Positions 288-20,624 of a stretch of 64,000 nucleotides of DNA are shown one piece after another. The notes under the pieces are model-generated. The model did not search any database and was not told the origin of the DNA. It saw nothing but the letters and a program-made list of their open reading frames with translations. Origin of the DNA: Saprospiraceae bacterium. GTDB taxonomy: Bacteria > Bacteroidota > Bacteroidia > Chitinophagales > Saprospiraceae. Each line of letters starts with the position of its first letter. Positions within the stretch are counted from its first letter, which is position 1. The DNA lies in the NCBI GenBank assembly GCA_029251525.1, contig JAQXDE010000030.1, forward strand, positions 1 through 64,000, in the 5' to 3' direction. A program made the position numbers and the translations under genes.

Positions 288-1736
288 TCAACTTTGATTT
301 TCTTTTATTATGTCTAAAGGACTTTTAAGTTTTTTTAATGCTTTGTTTGAAATATGTAGATATCTTTCAGTTGTTTTTATAGATCCATGTCCTAATGCTT
401 CTTGAAGAAGTGCAACACTAAAGCCATTCTCAATACAATGGGTTGCATAACTATGGCGCAAGGTGTGGACTGTTCCGTAAGCAAAAACACGGGACTTTTG
501 TAAAGCAATTCTAAACACTTTTTGAATACTACTCCTACTGTATTGCCCTCCATGTTGCCCTTCAAATAACCAGTATTTTGGGTTGTATCTCTTTTTGTAT
601 TCATCCAAATATGGAACTACTTGTTCAGCTAAAGTTACAAATCTATCTTTTTTTCCTTTACCGTTCTTAATAAATATAGTTCGTCTATGCAAACTTATAT
701 CTTTTTTGCGAATGTTAATCACTTCACCTAATCGTAGCCCTCCAGAATAAATTATTAGTAATATTAATTTGTGTTTTAAATTTTTAGGCGATTCTATCAA
801 TTTCAATACCTCTTCTTGAGAAAAAATATTTGGAAGTGATTTTGATTTTTTTGGTCTTGGAATATTAATAAATTCCTTTGGACGCTTTAATACTTTTTCC
901 CAGTATGCTTTAATTGAATTAATAATGGAATTCTGAGTTGATTCAGATATTTTACTAAATTTTATTTGATGTAACAGATACTTTTGAATATCAGTTGAAG
1001 TTAAGTCAATAGGATCGATATGCTTGAAAAATAAGAAGATTTTAATTAAGTTAGATTTATATGACTTTAAAGTAGAATGACTATATCTCAGTAAAATTAT
1101 TTGTTCCTCGGTTTTTTGTAAAGCTTCTACCTGTTGATCATTTAATTCCTCTTTCTTTGTTTTTGAACTGAATTGTTTTGATGACCGAATATTTCCATTA
1201 AATTGATATGCCTCTGGTATATCTTTATCGATAACAAAGTCAAATACCAAATATTTCATTCCGATTTGCTTTTTAATCCTCCTGTAACTTGCTTTTACAT
1301 TTGGGATTTCCCAGCAAACTTTTTCCATATTCCATTTTCTTCCATCAATGTTCTTTAGGACATCTGCCCATCCTTTTTTATCAAATGGTACATATACTTT
1401 TAACCATTTTTGGTTCTTCTTTTTAATAATTATTTTTTCTCCAACTATCTTATACTTCGTTTTCCCTTCTGACTGGTAGGAAGCAAAAGAAACTTTAGGA
1501 GATGGCTGATCGGTTACAACAGGTATCTTTTTAGTAGGAAAAACTAATTGCTCTTTTCCAAAAGTGGATTCTAATTGATCAAATGAATTTTTTAGATAGG
1601 GTAGATGCCAACATTGTTTGCTTTGGCTCCATCTTGCACCAATGGATTTTATTTTTTGAATAAGTATATCATCATACTCAAACTTAATAGCAATCCGAGT
1701 ATCCTTTCGGTGTTCGATTTTGGATAAATTAATCAT
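288..1736 (-). CDS. Tyrosine recombinase/integrase with two N-terminal W-x6-W repeats
   Basis: Site-specific recombinase that would cut and rejoin DNA through a 3'-phosphotyrosine. The C-terminal catalytic domain (about residues 305-470) has all the expected residues: R335 in GGLRLGE, a Lys near 360 in NGKGKKDR, H424 and R427 in HTLRHSYATH, H450 in LGHGSIKTT and nucleophile Y459 in TERYLHI. A SAM-like core-binding domain (about 205-290) precedes it. Unusual for the family, residues 1-165 hold two copies of a roughly 45-residue module, each with W-x6-W and a CWx[LI]P end (W36/W43 and W135/W142), separated by a Lys-rich linker. At 482 aa it is well above the roughly 300 aa of XerC/D. It stands alone between a secreted protein gene and the redox operon. 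It could serve an integrative element or a chromosomal inversion switch, but no att site or cassette array was seen. Confidence 0.9.
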   Translation of the reverse strand: MINLSKIEHRKDTRIAIKFEYDDILIQKIKSIGARWSQSKQCWHLPYLKNSFDQLESTFGKEQLVFPTKKIPVVTDQPSPKVSFASYQSEGKTKYKIVGEKIIIKKKNQKWLKVYVPFDKKGWADVLKNIDGRKWNMEKVCWEIPNVKASYRRIKKQIGMKYLVFDFVIDKDIPEAYQFNGNIRSSKQFSSKTKKEELNDQQVEALQKTEEQIILLRYSHSTLKSYKSNLIKIFLFFKHIDPIDLTSTDIQKYLLHQIKFSKISESTQNSIINSIKAYWEKVLKRPKEFINIPRPKKSKSLPNIFSQEEVLKLIESPKNLKHKLILLIIYSGGLRLGEVINIRKKDISLHRRTIFIKNGKGKKDRFVTLAEQVVPYLDEYKKRYNPKYWLFEGQHGGQYSRSSIQKVFRIALQKSRVFAYGTVHTLRHSYATHCIENGFSVALLQEALGHGSIKTTERYLHISNKALKKLKSPLDIIKENQS

Positions 1737-2409: not shown

Positions 2410-2877
2410 TTAATTATAATAAAAGACCAACCAAATATGAAGAATCACCAACATGATAATTTGTACTGACATAAAAATATGAAACGTAATTCCGATGTGG
2501 TAATACCTTTTTAAAGAGTCACTATTTATTGAAAGGCCTATTAGCATATTTATGAAAAATACAACTGTTAGAAAAAGTAGTATGCCGTAATCTGGTCTGG
2601 TGCTGTGGAGGTAAAAAATAACTGGGGAAATCACTCCAAGCCAATTATGAGAGGAGATCATTCTTTTCATGTCTTTGTCGGTAGCATTAAAGAAAAATCT
2701 TTGGACTGGTAAAAACCACTGACTAAGAATAAATAAAAAAAGTACAAACCCACTCCAATATTGATAAGTAGAATTAGTTTGTAGTTGGTTTAAATAGTCA
2801 AATTCTAACTTTACTAAGTATTGCACTAAATATAAGGTGAACAGTATTAGACCGACACGATTTTTAATCTTTTCCAT
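2410..2877 (-). CDS. Small ferric-reductase-like bis-heme b membrane protein
   Basis: A 155-residue integral membrane protein with about five hydrophobic segments (near 8-25, 38-58, 76-94, 98-118 and 127-153). Two histidine pairs have the exact spacing used by NADPH oxidases and ferric reductases to hold two stacked b hemes: H77-x13-H91 on one helix and H133-x13-H147 on another. It lacks the FAD and NAD(P)H domains of a full ferric reductase, but the first gene of the same operon encodes them. Its start overlaps the end of the upstream monoheme gene by 14 bases, which indicates translational coupling. Inferred role: carrying electrons across the inner membrane between the cytoplasmic flavin/2Fe-2S unit and the external c hemes. 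The family match is by motif only. Confidence 0.75.
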   Translation of the reverse strand: MEKIKNRVGLILFTLYLVQYLVKLEFDYLNQLQTNSTYQYWSGFVLFLFILSQWFLPVQRFFFNATDKDMKRMISSHNWLGVISPVIFYLHSTRPDYGILLFLTVVFFINMLIGLSINSDSLKRYYHIGITFHIFMSVQIIMLVILHIWLVFYYN

Positions 2878-3691
2878 ATAAAAAACTCTTAATTAAATCT
2901 AATGCTGCAACATTAAGTATTGTGTCAGAAAAAGAATTCGTATTAGGTAAAAAATATCCTTCACTAGGCCATCTTACTCCTATTTTTATTTTATTGGTGT
3001 TTTGAAATGTTTTTGTTTTATCTAAATAGGAGGAGTATGTACGATTTGCACTTTGGCTATAAACATTAATCCAATTGATAAGCTCATTTGTAGTGATGGA
3101 ATCCCTGGGGAACGCCCATGTTGTTGCGCCCATTATATCATTGAGGATCCAGTCTTTTTTAGAGGAATTAGGGTGGTTGTTGTGACAACTGACGCAAGCA
3201 TCCGTAGAGGCGAAGTCAGGGAACATGCCAATATATCGATTGGTTTCATTATCTCTAAAGAACTTTGGCTCTAAATCTTTTTTTATTTCTTTAAACTTTT
3301 CTGCTTGAATGCCTTTTAATAGGTTTGAACCAGATATAGGGAAGTCTGATCCGAGATATAAGCTAAGAGGGACAGGGCTTTTTTCTAGATAAGCGGATGT
3401 TGACCTTAAAAATAGCGCAGGTAAAGGGCCTGCTTCGATCTCATTATTCTGCCAATTTTCATCGAATTTCATCCCTGCTCTTGTCCCATCTCCAACTATC
3501 AATTTAGTATAGCAAGTCCTGTATTTATCATTGAGGTTTGCGACTATTTGGAAGCCATCATTGACGGAGTAGGTATAGGATTCTTTCCTGTACATTTTCT
3601 TGAGAGGTTCAGGAGCTGTAAAAAACAAATACGAGTTTAGTGTTAAAAACACCAAGGTGATTAGGAGTAAAAATATGTTTTTTTTAGTCAT
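2864..3691 (-). CDS. Membrane-anchored Tll0287-like (DUF3365) monoheme cytochrome c
   Basis: A 275-residue protein with an N-terminal signal anchor (residues 5-24) and one c-type heme site, CVSCH, followed by NNHP. The segment LPALFLRSTSAYLE and the later CVSCHNNHP/MGATTWAFP pattern match the Tll0287-like heme domain, which in other bacteria occurs alone or as a sensor input domain. No kinase or cyclase output domain is attached, so here it is more likely an electron carrier or a redox-sensing subunit exposed outside the inner membrane. It is the middle gene of the redox operon: 12 bases after the upstream fusion gene and overlapping the downstream heme b gene. Confidence 0.75.
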   Translation of the reverse strand: MTKKNIFLLLITLVFLTLNSYLFFTAPEPLKKMYRKESYTYSVNDGFQIVANLNDKYRTCYTKLIVGDGTRAGMKFDENWQNNEIEAGPLPALFLRSTSAYLEKSPVPLSLYLGSDFPISGSNLLKGIQAEKFKEIKKDLEPKFFRDNETNRYIGMFPDFASTDACVSCHNNHPNSSKKDWILNDIMGATTWAFPRDSITTNELINWINVYSQSANRTYSSYLDKTKTFQNTNKIKIGVRWPSEGYFLPNTNSFSDTILNVAALDLIKSFLYGKD

Positions 3692-3703
3692 TCTGAAAGG
3701 GGC

Positions 3704-5419
3704 TTAATTTTGGTTTTTTATCGAATCTACTATATATCTTTTTACTTCGCCATAGGGATCATCTCCACCTAGAAAATAGTTTTTCACGCGCTGCAATGAA
3801 ATAGTGTCTGTTAAGTTTTTAGGGACTTCATAAATATGATTGCCATGGAAATCATGACATTGTAAACAAGTACTCCATTGCTCTGTGAGCATTAAATGCT
3901 CATGACTGGTTTCCAAAGGGTCATTATTTATTTTTATGTCTTGGTGGCAATGCTTACAGAAATCAACTTGGTCTATTGATAAACGTTTTCCAGTATGTTC
4001 ATTATGACAACTCGTGCAATTTTCTGGATGTATTTCCATCCTTGCATTTACAAATCTAGGCTCGATAAACCGGTGAGTTGGATGAACATCATTTGGGCGA
4101 ACATGACAATTCAAACACTTATCATTGTCAACTTTCATTTTGCCAAACTCTACATATTCATCATCGATTAAGTTTAAAAATGTTTTGGCGTTATTTTGTA
4201 GCTGCTGCCTAATAGTGCCATTTGCTGCTGTATGACAATCAACGCATCTTAAGTTTTCATGTCCTGTATTCATATGACCTTTGGCTAAATACAATTCATT
4301 TGACTCGTCAGTAAGAGATAAGAGAAGAAAAAATGAAAAGAAGATACTGATTATTATTAGGTAATTTCTTTTGATAATGGACTTAAATAGGCTTTTATCA
4401 AAATCAACTACCACTTGGTCATTTATTGGAAAAGAAGTACATGTTAGAATCTTGTTGGATCTAACTTGATATTTATTTATTGAATTCACTCTTCCGGACT
4501 TAAGCGCAGCCTTGCACGATTGGCAATTTCCTATTTTGCATTCATAATCAATTTTATAACCAGCCTTCAGCGTTGCGTCCAAAATACTCTGGTTGGCGTT
4601 AACGGTAACGTTATGAGTCAGTCCCTTTAGCCTTATTTTTATTTGTTGCGATTTTGACGAAGGGTTTTCAGCACGAGAGGCAACAAAGAAGTTTTCAAAT
4701 TTTATATCCGTATGATTAACTTTATTGTCTTTTAGATGATTGAGTGTGTTTTCTATAATTATGGAGGGCCCCGTTGTATAGAAGATAGAATCATCGTAAG
4801 GTATGTTGTACTTTAAAAAGATTTCATCAATTTTTGCTATTGAAAGCTGTCCTACTTCCCCAGTCCAATTTTCACTGGGTTCATCTATCGTGAATATAAA
4901 CTGGCAATTGGATTGTTTTACATTTTGAAAGTGTTTAAAAAATATGATACTGTTGGCGACTCTGTTAGCATAGATTAGGAAAATTCGGCCATCGAATTTA
5001 TTAATCAGAGCATGATTTATCATGGATTTTATTGGTGTAATACCACTCCCGCCGGTTACAAAAACAAGGTTTTGATAATTATTTAAGATAGAATTATTTA
5101 AAATGAATTTTCCTTTTGGGGGGCTTACCTGCAATGTATCGCCAATATTATATTCAAAATGCAATAAGTTTGAAACTATACCACCTGGAACTAGTTTTAC
5201 GCAAAAGGTAATATTTTGCGAGTTGATGGAATTAGTTATTGAATAGTGTCTACTCTGCTTGACGCCATTTTTATCTTTTAAATGAATTATTATGTACTGA
5301 CCAGGAATGTATAGGAATTCACTTTTTAATTCATCAGTAATACGAAGCGTGTAGCAATAAGAATCAGGAGATTCTTTATATTTCTGTATAATATTTAATG
5401 TAAAGATTTGTTGTTTCAT
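3704..5419 (-). CDS. FAD/NAD(P) reductase - 2Fe-2S ferredoxin - pentaheme cytochrome fusion
   Basis: A 571-residue fusion of three redox modules. Residues 1-240 form a ferredoxin-NADP reductase-type domain: RHYSITNS is the FAD motif, VTGGSGITPIKSMI the NAD(P)-binding start and FYTTGPS the C-terminal motif. Residues about 260-345 form a plant-type 2Fe-2S ferredoxin with Cys spacing C-x4-C-x2-C and a distal Cys in ILTCTSFP. One membrane segment follows (about 355-373). The outer part carries five c-type heme motifs: CVDCH, CLNCH, CTSCH, CKHCH and CLQCH. Predicted topology: flavin and iron-sulfur domains in the cytoplasm, hemes in the periplasm. It is the promoter-proximal gene of the operon with the Tll0287-like and heme b proteins. 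The domain calls are secure. The electron flow NAD(P)H to FAD to 2Fe-2S to heme b to heme c, and the final acceptor, are inference. Confidence 0.88.
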   Translation of the reverse strand: MKQQIFTLNIIQKYKESPDSYCYTLRITDELKSEFLYIPGQYIIIHLKDKNGVKQSRHYSITNSINSQNITFCVKLVPGGIVSNLLHFEYNIGDTLQVSPPKGKFILNNSILNNYQNLVFVTGGSGITPIKSMINHALINKFDGRIFLIYANRVANSIIFFKHFQNVKQSNCQFIFTIDEPSENWTGEVGQLSIAKIDEIFLKYNIPYDDSIFYTTGPSIIIENTLNHLKDNKVNHTDIKFENFFVASRAENPSSKSQQIKIRLKGLTHNVTVNANQSILDATLKAGYKIDYECKIGNCQSCKAALKSGRVNSINKYQVRSNKILTCTSFPINDQVVVDFDKSLFKSIIKRNYLIIISIFFSFFLLLSLTDESNELYLAKGHMNTGHENLRCVDCHTAANGTIRQQLQNNAKTFLNLIDDEYVEFGKMKVDNDKCLNCHVRPNDVHPTHRFIEPRFVNARMEIHPENCTSCHNEHTGKRLSIDQVDFCKHCHQDIKINNDPLETSHEHLMLTEQWSTCLQCHDFHGNHIYEVPKNLTDTISLQRVKNYFLGGDDPYGEVKRYIVDSIKNQN

Positions 5420-5823: not shown

Positions 5824-8721
5824 TTATCCCACTACAATATTTACCATTCTTTTTGGAACAACAATTACTTTACGAACTGTTTTCCCTTCCGTGTACTTTT
5901 GAATTGCCTCCATTGCTAGAGCAGTAACTTCAATGTCTTCTTTTGATGCATCAGCAGGGAAGGTCGCTTCTGCCCGTTTCTTTCCATTAATGGAAATCGG
6001 GTAAGTGATAGAATCTTCTACTAAGTAGGATTCATCGGCTTGTGGGTAAGTTGATTTATGCACAGAAATTACTTCCTCCTGATGGCCTAATTTATTCCAG
6101 AGTTCCTCTGTTACGTGTGGAGCAAATGGTGCCAATAGTTGTACTAAGGGTGTCAGCACTTCTTTTTTATTGCATTTGATTTTTTTCAAATCATTAGTCG
6201 CTACCATAAATCCACTCACACAAGTATTGAAGGAGAACCGTTCGATATCATCGTTTACTTTTTTGATCGCAGTGTGCAAAATTTTCATTTCATCTTTAGT
6301 CGCAGGTTCTTCAGAAATAGAAAAAATATTTTCATCTGTATTGTTCTCATGAAACAAGCTCCAGAATTTTCTCAAAAATTTAGAAACACCATCGATCCCC
6401 TTTGTATCCCACGGCTTTCCTTGTTCAATTGGCCCTAAGAACATCTCATACATTCTAAAACAATCAGAACCATATTTTTCAACTACATCATCAGGGTTAA
6501 CTACATTAAAGTATCGTTTGGACATTTTTCCAACTTCTGACTTTGTAATTAGTTGGCTATCAGTTGTATCGCCATTTGGGGTGAAACTTCCTTTGGCGTA
6601 CTTCCCCATTCCACAAACAAATTCAGCATCTGCATACTCGGGCCTCCAATCAATAAATTGCTTGATGCTGTCGATGTTCAAATATGAGTTAGGTACACCG
6701 TAATCTTTCACAAAGTCAACATGAATTGGAATTTTGGCAAATTCTACCCCTTCTTTCATCTGTGCATCTGCAATTTTGGAACAATAAAACTGAGTAATGC
6801 CATTCTGCTTTTCTTTTTTTAAGTAAACATATTCAATAACTCCTTGGATCATTCCTTGGTTTACTAATTTTTTAAATGGTTCTTTAGTAGGAACCATTCC
6901 TTTATCAAAAAGGAATTTATGCCAGAATCTTGAATACATTAAATGGCCAACAGCATGTTCTGTTCCACCTACATACAAGTCCACTTCTTTCCAATATTCC
7001 AATGCTTTGGGACCAGCAAATGCATTGTTATTTTCTGCGTCCATATACCTTAAAAAATACCAACTAGATCCAGCGTACCCTGGCATAGTATCAGTTTCAC
7101 GAGTGAACCCTGGTTTTTCATTTACCCAGTCTGTTGCTCTAGCCAAAGGGGATTTTCCACTTGCCGTAGGTTTGAAGTCATCAAGAATAGGTAGCTCAAC
7201 AGGTAATTCATCTTCTGGAACAGCATGAGCTACACCATCCTTGTCAAATAAAATAGGATAGGGCTCTCCCCAATATCTTTGCCGGGAGAAATTGGCATCA
7301 CGTAATTTATAATTGATTTTTCCAGCACCAATACCCATTTCTTCGATTTTGGCAATAGCAGCCGTGATTGCCTCTGGCACTTCCATTCCATTCAAAAATC
7401 CAGAGTTAATCATAACTCCTAGTTTATCGTGCAAAGACGCATTTGGATATTTAGACTTGTCGACTACATCTATAATTTCAAGATCGAATTTTTTTGCAAA
7501 CGCTTGATCTCGATCATCATCACTCGGTACCGCCATGATGGCACCTGTACCATAATCCAATAGTACGTATTCTGAAATCCATATGGGTAAATTTTTACCT
7601 GTAATTGGATTGAATGCATAGGCACCAGTGAAAGCTCCAGTTACTTCTTTTACTTCGGACATTCGTTCTCTTTCTGATCGAGAGTTTACATATTTTTTGT
7701 AGTCTTCAACTGATTGCTTTTGTTGAACGGTGGTCAACTTTTCTACCAAAGGATGCTCTGGGGCTAGTACCATAAAGGTGGCTCCAAATATAGTATCAGG
7801 TCGAGTGGTGAAAACTTCAATTTGATTTTCCTCTTCTGTTCCTTCAATATTGAAAAAAACTTGTGCACCCTCTGATCGCCCGATCCAATTTTTTTGCATG
7901 GTTTTTAAAGAGTCAGACCATTCCAAATCATCAAAGTCGTTGATTAATCGTTCTGCATATGCGGTTATTCTTAAAGACCATTGCATCATTGCTCTTTTCT
8001 CAACGGGATGCCCACCTCGCTCTGAAACACCATCCTTGACTTCATCATTTGCTAAGACGGTTCCTAATGCTTCACACCAATTTACGTATCCAACTTTTTG
8101 ATAACCTAATCGGTAATTCATTAGGATTTCATCTTTTTGCTTTGGTGTCATTGTTGCCCATTCGGCTGCACTAAAAATAGTATCCTGAGTGGTAGATGCA
8201 TTGACGTTGATGTTCCCTTCTTTTTCAAATTGAGCAATTAAATCAGAGATTGGCTGTGCTTTATCTGTATTTTTGCAATAATAATGTTTGAATATTTGCA
8301 AAAATATCCATTGTGTCCATTTATAGTATTTAGGGCTGGACGTTCGAACTTCTCGATCCCAATCAAATGAGAAACCGATATTATCTAATTGTTCTCTGTA
8401 TCGTTGGATATTTATTCGGGTCGCTTCAGCAGGGTGGATGCCTGTTTGTATTGCATACTGCTCTGCGGGTAAGCCAAAAGCATCATAACCCATAGGGTGT
8501 AATACATTAAACCCCTTTAATCTCTTATAACGAGCAAATATATCAGAAGCAATATACCCTAGTGGATGACCTACATGGAGACCTGCGCCAGAGGGATAAG
8601 GGAACATATCTAGAACATAATATTTAGGTAAATCAGAGTCATTGGAGACTTTATAAATCTTATTGTCTTCCCAATAATTTCGCCATTTTTTCTCGATCTC
8701 TCTAGGATTGTACATTGCCAT
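5824..8721 (-). CDS. leuS: Leucyl-tRNA synthetase
   Basis: Charges tRNA-Leu with leucine in the cytoplasm (class Ia synthetase). The HIGH motif appears as HVGH at residues 49-52 after FPYPSGAGL. The editing (CP1) domain shows the TTRPDTIFGATF and GTGAIMAVPSDDDRDQ motifs. The second catalytic motif is KMSKR at 732-736 instead of KMSKS. At 965 aa it is about 100 residues longer than the E. coli enzyme. The extra length lies mainly around residues 160-195 and just before KMSKR (about 630-730), which I take to be lineage insertions. The second codon pair allows a start one residue pair later (MAM), with no effect on function. It is monocistronic, with its own terminator downstream. Confidence 0.97.
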   Translation of the reverse strand: MAMYNPREIEKKWRNYWEDNKIYKVSNDSDLPKYYVLDMFPYPSGAGLHVGHPLGYIASDIFARYKRLKGFNVLHPMGYDAFGLPAEQYAIQTGIHPAEATRINIQRYREQLDNIGFSFDWDREVRTSSPKYYKWTQWIFLQIFKHYYCKNTDKAQPISDLIAQFEKEGNINVNASTTQDTIFSAAEWATMTPKQKDEILMNYRLGYQKVGYVNWCEALGTVLANDEVKDGVSERGGHPVEKRAMMQWSLRITAYAERLINDFDDLEWSDSLKTMQKNWIGRSEGAQVFFNIEGTEEENQIEVFTTRPDTIFGATFMVLAPEHPLVEKLTTVQQKQSVEDYKKYVNSRSERERMSEVKEVTGAFTGAYAFNPITGKNLPIWISEYVLLDYGTGAIMAVPSDDDRDQAFAKKFDLEIIDVVDKSKYPNASLHDKLGVMINSGFLNGMEVPEAITAAIAKIEEMGIGAGKINYKLRDANFSRQRYWGEPYPILFDKDGVAHAVPEDELPVELPILDDFKPTASGKSPLARATDWVNEKPGFTRETDTMPGYAGSSWYFLRYMDAENNNAFAGPKALEYWKEVDLYVGGTEHAVGHLMYSRFWHKFLFDKGMVPTKEPFKKLVNQGMIQGVIEYVYLKKEKQNGITQFYCSKIADAQMKEGVEFAKIPIHVDFVKDYGVPNSYLNIDSIKQFIDWRPEYADAEFVCGMGKYAKGSFTPNGDTTDSQLITKSEVGKMSKRYFNVVNPDDVVEKYGSDCFRMYEMFLGPIEQGKPWDTKGIDGVSKFLRKFWSLFHENNTDENIFSISEEPATKDEMKILHTAIKKVNDDIERFSFNTCVSGFMVATNDLKKIKCNKKEVLTPLVQLLAPFAPHVTEELWNKLGHQEEVISVHKSTYPQADESYLVEDSITYPISINGKKRAEATFPADASKEDIEVTALAMEAIQKYTEGKTVRKVIVVPKRMVNIVVG

Positions 8722-17598: not shown

Positions 17599-19041
17599 TT
17601 ATTTAACAAATTGTTTCGTTACACTATTATTATCCCCTTTAAGTTCAAGTATATAATTACCACTTGGCAAATTGGTTACATCGACAGTCATTTTTTTACT
17701 GTCTACGGATAATTGTTTTACCACTTGCCCAGAGGAATCGTATATCCTTAATGTTTCAATTGCGATCATGTTGGAAATTATTAATTCATGATTTGCAGGA
17801 TTTGGAAATAAGTACACATCATTTGTTTCAGTTACTTGTTCATAATCAGAGTTGATTATATCGTTTTTGTATAATTTTGATATTGCTTGCATAGTTGAAA
17901 CATCTCCAGTGATAAGAATATCTAAATCGGCATCCCCATCTACGTCTGCAAAGGCAATTGAAGAAGAAGATACGGCTGCAAAGGGCATATCATTTACCTC
18001 TGTGAATGTTCCATTTCCATCATTTGTGTATAAAGTTGAAATGTTTTGCGTTTGATCTATTGTCTTCCCCGTAATTAATACATCCATATCATTATCTCCA
18101 TCAACATCAGCAAAAGCAATTGAAGAGGTAGATACTGCTATAAATGGGTGATCTATCACTTCTGTAAAAATTCCAGAACCATCGTTTTTGTATAATTTTG
18201 AGATGGGCTGCATTAAATCGGAAGTATCCCCGGTGATCAAGACGTCCAAATCATTGTCTCCATCAATATCGGCAAAGGCAATTGAAGAGTTATGAACGCC
18301 ATCAAAAGGTGTTGCAGCCACTTCAGTAAATAGCCCATTGCCATCGTTAGTATATAGTTTTGATACAGGCATCGATGGTGCTGTCCAGGAGAATGCAGTA
18401 TCTCCTGTAATCAAAACATCCATATCAAAATCACCATCTATATCAGCAAAGGCAATGGAGGAGGAGGAAACACCCTCAAAAGGAGTATTGGTCAGTTCTG
18501 TAAATATTCCATTACCATCATTAGTATATAATTTTGAGATTGAATTTCCCGTAATCAAAACATCCAAGTCAGCATCTCCATCAATATCAGTGAAAGCAAT
18601 GGAAGAGCTGGCCACGCCCTCAAATGGAGTATTTTCTACCTCAGAGAAAACACCATCACCATCATTGGTATATAATTTTGAGATAGGTGGAGTAAAAGGT
18701 GAAATAGCTCCTGTAATCAAAATATCCATGTCAGCATCTCCATCAATATCAGAAAAAGCAACTGAAGGGGCAAAAACACCTTCAAATGGAGTATTTTCTA
18801 CCTCAGAAAAAACTCCATCACCATCGTTGGTATATAATTTTGAGATGGGACTTGGAAAAGTAGCAAAAGAGGGAGCTCCCGCAATCAGGACATCCATATC
18901 ATTATCTCCATCAATATCGGCAAAGGCAATGGAGGAGGAGGCAACATCCTCGAAAGGTGTCCCGGTTATTTCTGTAAATACTTGCCCATTTATGAAGGCT
19001 AGTGGCAAGGAAAGTAGAAAAAATAAAGTGTAATGTTTCAT
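17599..19041 (-). CDS. Secreted FG-GAP/VCBS repeat protein with T9SS type A sorting domain
   Basis: A 480-residue exported protein. The signal peptide is residues 1-20 (MKHYTLFFLLSLPLAFINGQ). An ATG 27 bases upstream would spoil it, so I start at 19041. The body has seven FG-GAP-like repeats of about 54 residues. Each carries a PFxxVxxSSIAFADIDGD core followed by DxDVLITG and SKLYTNDG, and the DxDGDxD loops bind calcium. The last 75 residues (VYLFPNPANHELIIS to the end) are a type A T9SS C-terminal domain, so it should be exported through the outer membrane and anchored or released. It is a neighbour and paralogue of the next upstream gene. The repeats probably form a beta-propeller for adhesion or glycan binding. 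Confidence 0.88.
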   Translation of the reverse strand: MKHYTLFFLLSLPLAFINGQVFTEITGTPFEDVASSSIAFADIDGDNDMDVLIAGAPSFATFPSPISKLYTNDGDGVFSEVENTPFEGVFAPSVAFSDIDGDADMDILITGAISPFTPPISKLYTNDGDGVFSEVENTPFEGVASSSIAFTDIDGDADLDVLITGNSISKLYTNDGNGIFTELTNTPFEGVSSSSIAFADIDGDFDMDVLITGDTAFSWTAPSMPVSKLYTNDGNGLFTEVAATPFDGVHNSSIAFADIDGDNDLDVLITGDTSDLMQPISKLYKNDGSGIFTEVIDHPFIAVSTSSIAFADVDGDNDMDVLITGKTIDQTQNISTLYTNDGNGTFTEVNDMPFAAVSSSSIAFADVDGDADLDILITGDVSTMQAISKLYKNDIINSDYEQVTETNDVYLFPNPANHELIISNMIAIETLRIYDSSGQVVKQLSVDSKKMTVDVTNLPSGNYILELKGDNNSVTKQFVK

Positions 19042-19172
19042 GTTTCTAAATTTTAAAAAGCCTGACATTAATAGATTAAATCACTCACTTATAGTCAAAT
19101 TTTATTTTTAATTTTTTGGGGTTTAATATTCTATGCTTAGATAAAGCCTTCTTTATTCTAATTACTAGACTT

Positions 19173-20624
19173 TTACAATTTCAAGATTTTTTTTGTGATT
19201 GTTTTACTATTTTCTACTTGAAATTGTAATAGATAAACTCCTAGAGGTAAGTTACTGACGTCAATAGTTAACTCTTCATTATTTATTGGTAGGTGTTGAA
19301 TAACTTGTCCCTGTGAATCATAAATCGTAACAGCATCAATGAATTTTAAGTTAGAGACCTTCAATTCATGATGTGCAGGATTTGGAAAAACTATTACATC
19401 ATTTGTTTTCTCTATCTGATTAAAAGTAGAACTGATTTGATCGTTAGAGTATAATTTTGATGTTGGTTGAAAAGAGGCATTTCCAGTCATTAGAATATCT
19501 AAATCAGTATCTCCATCAATATCAGCAAAGGCAATGGACGAATTACTGTAACCTATTATCGATGTTCCAGCCACTTCTGAGAATAAGCCGCTTCCATCAT
19601 TGATATATAATAAAGTGATAGACTGATTGAAAGTATCACCAGTTATGAGGACATCCATATCGGTATCTCCGTCAACATCGGCGAAAGCAATTGAAGAGGA
19701 GGAAACTCCCTCAAAAGGGGTATCAGCCACTTCCGAAAACATACCATTTCCATCATTAGCAAATAATTTTGCTATTGGTTGATAAGAGGAATTACGTCCC
19801 GTAATCAGAAGATCTAAGTCGTCATCCTCGTCCGTATCGGCAAAAGCAATTGAAGGTCCACGAACTCCTTCAAAAGGGGTATTGGCCACCTCTGAAAATA
19901 AGCCGCTTCCATCATTGGTATATAATTTTGGTACGAATGCTGGACTTGCTGGTGAGATTGCAGGCGTACTTCCTGAAATGAAAAGGTCCAAATCGTTATC
20001 TCCATCAATATCGACAAATGCAACTGAAGCATTAAAAACAGCATCAAAAGGGGTATTGGCCACCTCTGAAAATAAGCCGCTTCCATCATTGGTATATAAT
20101 TTTGATATTGGTTGGCTCGGCCAAGAGGGGGAAGAGTCACCGGTTATTAGTACATCCAAATCGTTGTCTCCATCAATGTCAGCAAAAGTAACAGAGGCGG
20201 AGGAGACCTTTTCGAAAGGAGTGTCAATGACCTCGGAAAATACACCAGTTCCATCATTAGTAAATAAATTTGATATCGGTTCGTAAGAAGAATTACGCCC
20301 GGAAATTAATACATCTACATCACCATCACCATCAATATCTCCAAAGGCAACTGAAGAAGAAGAAACGCCTTCAAAAGGAGTTCCAGCGACTTCTGAGAAA
20401 ATGCCATTTCCATCATTTGTGTACAACTTAGATATAGGTTCACTTTGATTAGAGGTATCTCCAGTTATGAGTACATCCAAATCGTTATCTCCATCAATAT
20501 CGGCAAATGCAATTGAAGAAAAAGAAACCCCAGCAAAAGGCGTTTCTTCTATCTCAGTAAAAGTCTGACCGAACAAAAAAGAGATAGGGAGGAAAATTAT
20601 TAAAAATAAACTTATTTGTTTCAT
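19173..20624 (-). CDS. Secreted FG-GAP/VCBS repeat protein with T9SS type A sorting domain (paralogue)
   Basis: A 483-residue paralogue of the neighbouring gene, with the same plan: a signal peptide (1-19, ending SFLFGQ), seven Ca-binding FG-GAP repeats with the DIDGDNDLDVLITG core, and a C-terminal type A sorting domain from VIVFPNPAHHELKVS. Repeat 5 is degenerate (DTDEDDDLD) and repeat 7 lacks the PF start. Two repeats share a 61-base identical stretch, so the array has been reshaped recently at the DNA level. The gene lies 131 bases upstream of its sister, in tandem, and arose by gene duplication. A beta-propeller surface adhesin is the likely role. Confidence 0.88.
   Translation of the reverse strand: MKQISLFLIIFLPISFLFGQTFTEIEETPFAGVSFSSIAFADIDGDNDLDVLITGDTSNQSEPISKLYTNDGNGIFSEVAGTPFEGVSSSSVAFGDIDGDGDVDVLISGRNSSYEPISNLFTNDGTGVFSEVIDTPFEKVSSASVTFADIDGDNDLDVLITGDSSPSWPSQPISKLYTNDGSGLFSEVANTPFDAVFNASVAFVDIDGDNDLDLFISGSTPAISPASPAFVPKLYTNDGSGLFSEVANTPFEGVRGPSIAFADTDEDDDLDLLITGRNSSYQPIAKLFANDGNGMFSEVADTPFEGVSSSSIAFADVDGDTDMDVLITGDTFNQSITLLYINDGSGLFSEVAGTSIIGYSNSSIAFADIDGDTDLDILMTGNASFQPTSKLYSNDQISSTFNQIEKTNDVIVFPNPAHHELKVSNLKFIDAVTIYDSQGQVIQHLPINNEELTIDVSNLPLGVYLLQFQVENSKTITKKILKL
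19870..20104. repeat. 61-bp perfect direct repeat inside the FG-GAP gene
   Basis: Bases 19870-19930 and 20044-20104 are identical, 174 bases (58 codons) apart, one repeat unit of the encoded protein. The flanks differ. Confidence 0.85.

What the first reader, a model, noticed from the sequence alone, without database searches (positions are those of the whole stretch)
2410..5419. Three-gene operon reads as a split ferric reductase/NADPH oxidase joined to c-type hemes
Seen directly: a flavin/NAD(P) + 2Fe-2S + membrane segment + five-heme fusion, a one-heme Tll0287-like protein, and a membrane protein with two H-x13-H pairs, in one tight operon with a 14-base overlap. Known: ferric reductases and NADPH oxidases carry the membrane bis-heme b domain and the flavin domain in one chain. 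Inference: here they are split and c-type hemes are added outside, giving a complete route from NAD(P)H across the inner membrane to an external acceptor (metal, peroxide, quinone or a partner cell). I know of no described system with this layout.
Basis: partly seen in the sequence, partly recalled or inferred. Interest (0 to 1): 0.82.

Follow-up and report, generated by a model that had tools for sequence, protein, structure and literature searches.

The report
NAD(P)H-to-outside heme electron relay
Three neighbouring genes in a Bacteroidota genome look like a machine that carries electrons from a cell fuel molecule, NAD(P)H, through the inner membrane to iron-heme proteins on its outer side; related bacteria keep the same parts together, often beside nitrate-use genes and a globin, which hints at a role in dealing with toxic nitric oxide.

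Summary
The fusion occurs in 6 of the 37; in 31 it is split into an FNR gene and a five-heme gene. The four histidines are the only invariant ones in 39 aligned membrane proteins. Split flavin/membrane-heme pairs are known (MsrQ-Fre); the c-heme additions and Tll0287-like subunit I found in no paper searched. I favour a transmembrane NAD(P)H-driven relay that reduces a nitrogen oxide, most likely NO, at the Tll0287-like heme. The relay is well supported; the acceptor is inference, weakened because in the window's own genome I found no globin and no nitrate reductase.

The parts
3704..5419 (-). Protein 1 (571 aa): FNR-type flavoprotein + 2Fe-2S + membrane helix + five-heme domain, one chain
5105..5395 (-). 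FAD-binding domain, residues 9-105; R57-x-Y59-S60
   Evidence: PF00970; R57, Y59, S60 invariant in 38 of 38 FNR parts
4751..5062 (-). NAD(P)-binding domain, residues 120-223 (GGSGITP)
   Evidence: (PF00175)
4427..4630 (-). Plant-type 2Fe-2S domain, residues 264-331; C294, C299, C302, C327
   Evidence: PF00111; the four Cys invariant in 38 of 38
4310..4366 (-). Single membrane helix, residues 352-370; K/R before it suggest the N-terminal part is inside
   Evidence: orientation inferred
3836..4261 (-). Five-heme c domain, residues 387-528: five CXXCH and six further invariant His
   Evidence: 37 of 37 sequences
2864..3691 (-). Protein 2 (275 aa): N-terminal anchor 6-24 + Tll0287-like (heme-Cache) domain, one CXXCH
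3182..3196 (-). CXXCH of protein 2, residues 166-170; H173 also invariant
2410..2877 (-). Protein 3 (155 aa): helical membrane protein, likely bis-heme b
   Evidence: heme binding inferred
2605..2649 (-). H77-x13-H91
2437..2481 (-). H133-x13-H147
2864..2877 (-). 14-base overlap of genes 2 and 3

Best explanation
A membrane complex that takes electrons from NAD(P)H in the cytoplasm (FAD, then 2Fe-2S, protein 1 N-terminal half), passes them through two b hemes in the membrane protein (H77/H133 inner, H91/H147 outer, protein 3) to the five c hemes on the outer face of the inner membrane (protein 1 C-terminal half, a wire), and from there to the single c heme of the Tll0287-like protein 2, where the acceptor is reduced. 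The acceptor is most likely a nitrogen oxide, nitric oxide first and nitrite second, so the system would remove NO outside the inner membrane, complementing a cytoplasmic globin in those relatives that have one. Shown: the parts, their motifs, their conservation and their linkage. Inferred: heme b binding, topology, order of transfer, the acceptor. I give about 0.8 to the transmembrane relay and about 0.45 to relay plus nitrogen-oxide acceptor.
For: All parts adjacent in 37 of 38 loci, the 38th a cut contig, in two architectures: fused in 6 of 37, separate FNR and five-heme genes in 31 of 37; also, split, on a Flammeovirga plasmid. The fusion joins the FNR to the N-terminus of the membrane-anchored cytochrome, which keeps the flavin inside and the hemes outside and argues that the two proteins touch. 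Four invariant His in 39 membrane proteins. Five CXXCH plus six further invariant His in 37 cytochrome domains: enough for five bis-His hemes, so a wire rather than a catalytic site. Protein 2 has the Tll0287 fold; eight ordinary Tll0287-like proteins share an invariant Cys before the CXXCH (C84 in A8; besides a lipobox-like Cys) that the module's family lacks, so its heme may have an open side. Related heme-Cache domains fused to signalling parts bind NO (PMC12889525; abstract, Results, Discussion read). Nitrate markers in the flank of 25 of 37 loci, globin adjacent on the same strand in 22 of 37 (families). Globin without a nitrate marker in L030, L031-L033, L059 and in the 15 features shown around the Flammeovirga copy, so the globin link does not merely follow nitrate clusters. 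In Bradyrhizobium a single-domain haemoglobin and a flavoprotein in a nitrate-assimilation operon act against NO (PMC4724949, abstract and passages). SpNOX can reduce cytochrome c directly (PMC5676040 passage).
Against: In the window's own genome I found no globin and no NasC-profile match at E <= 1e-60; of its three molybdopterin proteins I read two and neither looked like a nitrate reductase to me; the third was not read. Among seven fused-module genomes (window's included) 1 has a globin and 4 match the NasC profile, but two of the four (G575, G576) are frames of 914 and 925 aa, and the G575 one stands among genes that read as a formate dehydrogenase cluster (named by eye), so only 2 of 7 (G574, G579) have the long 1,180-aa Nas-NirB form; in the class 53 of 247 genomes match and 11 of 247 in a frame of 1,170 aa or more. 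In G574 and G579 the nitrate cluster lies apart from the module and lacks it. Seven of 37 loci have neither globin nor nitrate marker in the held flank. The one stand-alone heme-Cache protein tested in PMC12889525 binds NO weakly, and its authors assign such proteins a redox role. Of the 25 loci with nitrate markers 18 are Aquimarina (titles). N-gene names are under the curated cut-offs for the NasC-, NarK-, NtrB- and NtrCD-like proteins; NapA in L029 is over.
Confidence: 0.45

Rival explanations
1. The relay feeds a periplasmic carrier chain or a separate periplasmic reductase (nitrate reductase, peroxidase, other); protein 2 is only another carrier.
For: The stand-alone heme-Cache protein tested behaves as a redox protein (PMC12889525). 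A NapA gene lies about 5 kb upstream of the module in L029, with cytochrome genes, regulator and globin between. A one-heme cytochrome gene lies in the flank in 23 of 38 loci, right after the five-heme gene in those laid out.
Against: No one periplasmic reductase recurs among the conserved clusters; NapA was named in one locus only; in the window no reductase gene is adjacent.
Confidence: 0.2
2. Extracellular electron transfer to metal, mineral or partner cell.
For: Multiheme c domain fed from inside the cell; protein 2 has a lipobox-like N-terminus in the split-type rows and in L030 (alignment, judged by eye), so could be outer-membrane or surface bound there; a putative outer-membrane barrel protein (cluster 18) lies in 8 loci.
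Against: The barrel protein goes with the nitrate-transport genes; no large extracellular cytochrome stood out among the conserved clusters, though I made no dedicated search for one. In the window protein 2 has a plain anchor without lipobox.
Confidence: 0.1
3. Redox or NO sensing: the relay keeps the protein 2 heme ferrous so that it can bind NO and signal.
For: Cache domains are sensors; a CRP-type regulator lies in 7 and a response regulator in 9 of 38 flanks.
Against: Protein 2 has no signalling domain and one hydrophobic segment; a five-heme wire is a costly way to hold one heme reduced.
Confidence: 0.1
4. NADPH-oxidase-like or superoxide-handling activity at the membrane protein, with the c hemes as side branch.
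For: Heme proteins in the fold list include superoxide oxidase (5oc0, Z 9.5) and SpNOX (Z 8.5).
Against: Helical bundles without heme score as high or higher in the same list (Z up to 11.3). Links to oxidative-stress genes were not searched for.
Confidence: 0.08

Closest known systems
MsrQ-Fre and the ferric reductase / NADPH oxidase group
   Same: Flavin/NAD(P) protein inside, two His pairs on two membrane helices, electrons leave outward; two separate chains in MsrQ-Fre (PMC5676040 passages).
   Different: Here a 2Fe-2S cluster is added, the membrane protein is short (155 aa) and gives no PF01794 match, and five-heme and one-heme c proteins are built in.
Bradyrhizobium narK-bjgb-flp-nasC nitrate assimilation / NO detoxification system
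   Same: Nitrate genes, single-domain globin and NAD(P)H flavoprotein in one cluster (PMC4724949 abstract, passages); many split-type loci share this layout.
   Different: No membrane b protein or c hemes named for that operon in what I read; in the window's genome neither globin nor nas gene was found.
Tll0287 / sCache_heme (DUF3365) proteins
   Same: Cache-type fold with one CXXCH (5b82 best match).
   Different: The invariant Cys of ordinary members is not kept; a separate subfamily fixed in this module; residues after about 201 are not aligned to 5b82.
MsrQ-like flavinylated extracytosolic systems
   Same: NAD(P)H to outside through a heme membrane protein (PMC8238504 passages).
   Different: Those use ApbE-attached FMN outside; here c hemes take that place.

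Membership tests
Ferric reductase / NOX / MsrQ superfamily | Two His-x12/14-His pairs on two membrane helices | tested here: met
   39 of 39 proteins; helices in the model
Ferric reductase / NOX / MsrQ superfamily | Match to Pfam PF01794 Ferric_reduct | tested here: not met
   No PF01794 row at E <= 1 for protein 3 (only Cytochrom_B561 12 bits of 23 and DUF1514); no match at E <= 0.001 in the own genome
Ferric reductase / NOX / MsrQ superfamily | Common fold | tested here: inconclusive
   SpNOX Z 8.5, rmsd 3.1, 114 aligned, among unrelated bundles up to Z 11.3; Foldseek no match at E <= 0.001
Ferric reductase / NOX / MsrQ superfamily | FAD- and NAD(P)-binding reductase part | tested here: met
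   Present in protein 1, another chain
Ferric reductase / NOX / MsrQ superfamily | Binds two b hemes | not testable with these tools
   needs spectra
Tll0287-like / sCache_heme | CXXCH in a Cache-type fold | tested here: met
   C166, C169, H170 invariant in 39; 5b82 top, Foldseek E 3.8e-3, prob 1.0, Z 9.7; hhalign prob 95, E 3.9e-8
Tll0287-like / sCache_heme | Axial Cys as described for Tll0287 | tested here: not met
   Only the CXXC cysteines are invariant in the family; window C60 is not shared. That A8 C84 is the Tll0287 ligand is my inference; the PDB alignment starts after it. Nor is a Cys ligand universal in the family (the P. azotoformans protein lacks it, PMC12889525)
Tll0287-like / sCache_heme | NO binding | not testable with these tools
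   -
FNR-type reductase with C-terminal 2Fe-2S (PaaE-like layout) | FAD, NAD and Fer2 domains in this order | tested here: met
   TIGR02160 166.4 bits over residues 12-341, under its cut-off 420.8
Cytochrome c3/c7 type multiheme proteins | Pfam match over cut-off | tested here: inconclusive
   Window PF14537 23.9 of 25 bits; L044 homologue 35.5 bits
Bjgb-Flp type nitrate assimilation / NO detoxification system | Globin and nitrate reductase with the flavoprotein | tested here: not met
   Window genome: no globin, no NasC-profile match. Relatives: globin adjacent 22 of 37, nitrate markers 25 of 37

The most novel reading that the evidence does not exclude
A new kind of NO (or nitrite) reductase that bypasses the quinone pool: NAD(P)H oxidised inside, the nitrogen oxide reduced outside the inner membrane at an open-sided heme in a Cache fold, fed by a bis-heme b protein and a five-heme wire. 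It would make a Cache domain, so far known mainly as a sensor, the catalytic end of an enzyme.
Probability: 0.25. Interest if true: 0.85.

Novelty: new variant of a known kind. Interest (0 to 1): 0.62.

Why it matters
If right, a small gene set lets a bacterium push electrons from NAD(P)H straight to periplasmic hemes without quinones, and gives a testable function to a subfamily of Tll0287-like proteins. It also suggests that some marine Bacteroidota guard nitrate use with a membrane NO defence that I found in none of the papers searched.

Tried and rejected
A scan of genome contigs with protein 1 found no relative; the second scan, with the two-row protein 2 alignment, gave the 38 loci. Its two short patterns favour close relatives, so 38 is a lower bound and distant forms are missed. 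The weak multiheme matches (E about 3e-6 to 1e-3; all but the own genome and G052) were not followed; I take them for ordinary multiheme cytochromes. PDB searches: protein 2 alone gave none, the protein 2 profile gave six chance-level rows, E 0.9 or more, the protein 3 profile none. Fold search for protein 3: no family stands out; superoxide oxidase, Dcytb, b561, cytochrome b6, SpNOX, NOX5 and STEAP1 appear among unrelated bundles. Profile comparison of protein 3 with one PF01794-matching protein and with a set of PF01292 proteins found nothing, but that set held two rows read in a wrong frame (L123, L130) and the first was a single sequence, so I draw no conclusion; against the L070-L073 proteins it gave probability 35.7, E 6.7e-5, carried by the last helix. 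The joint complex could not be modelled with the tool given. An artefact of the fusion was considered and rejected: 6 other loci carry it. L025 and L026 are near-identical and L028 appears to be the same contig as G052 (L007), so the independent count is smaller. L060 (cut contig) was left out of the neighbour counts; in L048 the five-heme gene is cut by the contig end. The labels 'NirA/Rbx', 'NrtA', 'NrtB', 'Mo-NR' are mine for clusters; one or two members of each were named by family searches.

Literature: PMC4603819 passages report a denitrification pathway in Aquimarina longa; PMC9230427 names a DUF3365 protein in a table only. PMC7726332 and the other papers not named as read were seen as search listings only. 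The statement that I found no paper on this gene set rests on searches, in an open-access library only.
Full report
What is there. Three minus-strand genes lie at 5419-3704, 3691-2864 and 2877-2410. Protein 1 has FAD_binding_6, NAD_binding_1 and Fer2 over their cut-offs, one hydrophobic segment at 352-370 and five CXXCH. Protein 2 just passes the Tll0287-like model and has a hydrophobic segment at 6-24. Protein 3 has no Pfam match over a cut-off and two H-x13-H pairs; shuffling gives two disjoint pairs in 43 of 20,000 cases. Upstream lies a leucyl-tRNA synthetase gene (5824-8721, same strand; named by eye), downstream a tyrosine-recombinase-like gene (288-1736; same remark).

Is it a unit? The multiheme half was searched in 198 genomes of the order: 9 match at E <= 0.001, of which the own genome and one other, G052, are strong (the rest under 24 bits). 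G052 has all three genes in the same order, 42-52% identical. The same query in 395 genomes of the phylum gave the own gene and nine weak matches. A scan of genome contigs with the protein 2 pair gave 38 loci; 37 hold all parts adjacent, the 38th contig ends inside the gene. This sample is drawn by protein 2, so the reverse was tried: the membrane-protein profile in 395 genomes of the phylum found the own gene and four weak matches limited to the last helix, and no full-length relative standing alone. In 31 of 37 loci the flavoprotein and the five-heme protein are separate genes, in the order protein 2 - protein 3 - FNR - five-heme; in 6 they are fused and come first. The fused ones, with the window, are one side of a supported branch of the protein 2 tree (98/94; the program warns that long branches make the order unsure).

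Chemistry of the parts. In 38 FNR parts R57, Y59, S60, the GSGxTP glycines and the four 2Fe-2S cysteines are invariant. In 37 five-heme domains the five CXXCH and six more His are invariant, enough for bis-His ligation of all five. In 39 membrane proteins four His are the only invariant ones and every protein has exactly two H-x13-H pairs. The predicted model (pLDDT 90.7) puts one pair on the helices 67-91 and the other on the last helix 120-153. By the positive-inside rule (recalled) both run inside to outside, giving an inner and an outer heme: inference. Protein 2 (pLDDT 89.5) has Tll0287 5b82 as best match (Foldseek E 3.8e-3, no match at E <= 0.001; Z 9.7, rmsd 3.7, 141 residues, next Z 6.8), and the family profile matches a profile of ordinary Tll0287-like proteins (probability 95, E 3.9e-8). 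Eight such proteins share an invariant Cys between a lipobox-like Cys and the CXXCH, which I take for the axial Cys named in PMC12889525; the module's family has no invariant Cys but the CXXC pair. That leaves an open or differently filled sixth site: inference.

Where it lives. Tll0287-like domains are common in the class (73 of 247 genomes); the window's own scores only 25 bits. Of 37 complete loci, 25 have nitrate markers (Mo-type reductase, NIR_SIR-rubredoxin protein, NrtA- or NrtB-like, NarK-like) in the held flank, 22 a globin next door on the same strand, 7 more a globin elsewhere in the flank, 7 neither (families, mostly under curated cut-offs in NCBIfam). ResB- and CcsA-like genes, for c-heme assembly, lie in the flank of 21 and 20 of 38. 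On a Flammeovirga plasmid hemA and a globin stand directly before the module. Eighteen of the 25 nitrate-type loci are Aquimarina; the others are Flavicella (3), unnamed Flavobacteriaceae (2), Wenyingzhuangia and Marixanthotalea (titles). For the fused type the link is weak: 4 of 7 genomes match the NasC profile, but two of these look like formate dehydrogenases, so 2 of 7 have the long Nas-NirB form, apart from the module, against 11 of 247 in the class (53 of 247 with any match); globin in 1 of 7. In the window's own genome neither was found.

How it most likely works. NAD(P)H - FAD - 2Fe-2S inside; two b hemes through the membrane; five c hemes outside; one Tll0287-like heme as the end station. 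The acceptor best fitting the neighbourhoods is a nitrogen oxide. Bradyrhizobium gives the precedent: its nasC operon holds a haemoglobin and a flavoprotein that counter NO formed as a by-product of nitrate assimilation (PMC4724949, abstract and passages). NO made or met outside the inner membrane would need a second device, and this module could be it. Nothing here measures NO chemistry, and the window's genome suggests that the module can also serve without globin and nitrate reductase.

Known or new. Split NOX-like pairs are known (MsrQ-Fre, PMC5676040 passages), and NAD(P)H-driven outward systems with flavinylated proteins are known (PMC8238504 passages). The heme-Cache preprint mentions fusions to cytochrome-like domains in Flavobacteria but, in the parts read and the terms searched, no such operon. 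I found no paper on this gene set in the searches listed under Tried and rejected. I rate it a new variant of a known kind: transmembrane NAD(P)H-to-outside electron transfer, with new composition.

Noticed in passing
window 288-1736 (-): A 482-aa tyrosine-recombinase-like gene (named by eye) directly downstream of the module; the module is rare in the order and sits on a plasmid in Flammeovirga, so it may move between genomes.
   Followed up: no
L070-L073: Another layout in distant members of the phylum: a 4Fe-4S protein (with a cNMP-binding piece in L070), a membrane protein in frames of 333-463 aa whose last helix resembles protein 3, His pair included, and a long multiheme cytochrome.
   Followed up: partly
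L044:3441-6998 and L117:8388-11921: NasC-like nitrate reductase fused to a front half of NirB (about 1,180 aa), followed by a 480-aa protein; in L044 that protein has a NIR_SIR half domain and ends in rubredoxin.
   Followed up: partly
L032:12445-13317 (-) and similar frames in L031, L033, L052, L054, L059, L061: About 290-aa globin proteins near the module; the one scanned with Pfam (L032) has two globin stretches in one chain.
   Followed up: no
window 17599-20624 (-): Two neighbouring, similar secreted-looking repeat proteins (FADIDGD-type repeats), likely a tandem duplication (by eye).
   Followed up: no
L068:6039-7786: hemA and a globin placed directly before the module on a Flammeovirga kamogawensis plasmid.
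   Followed up: no
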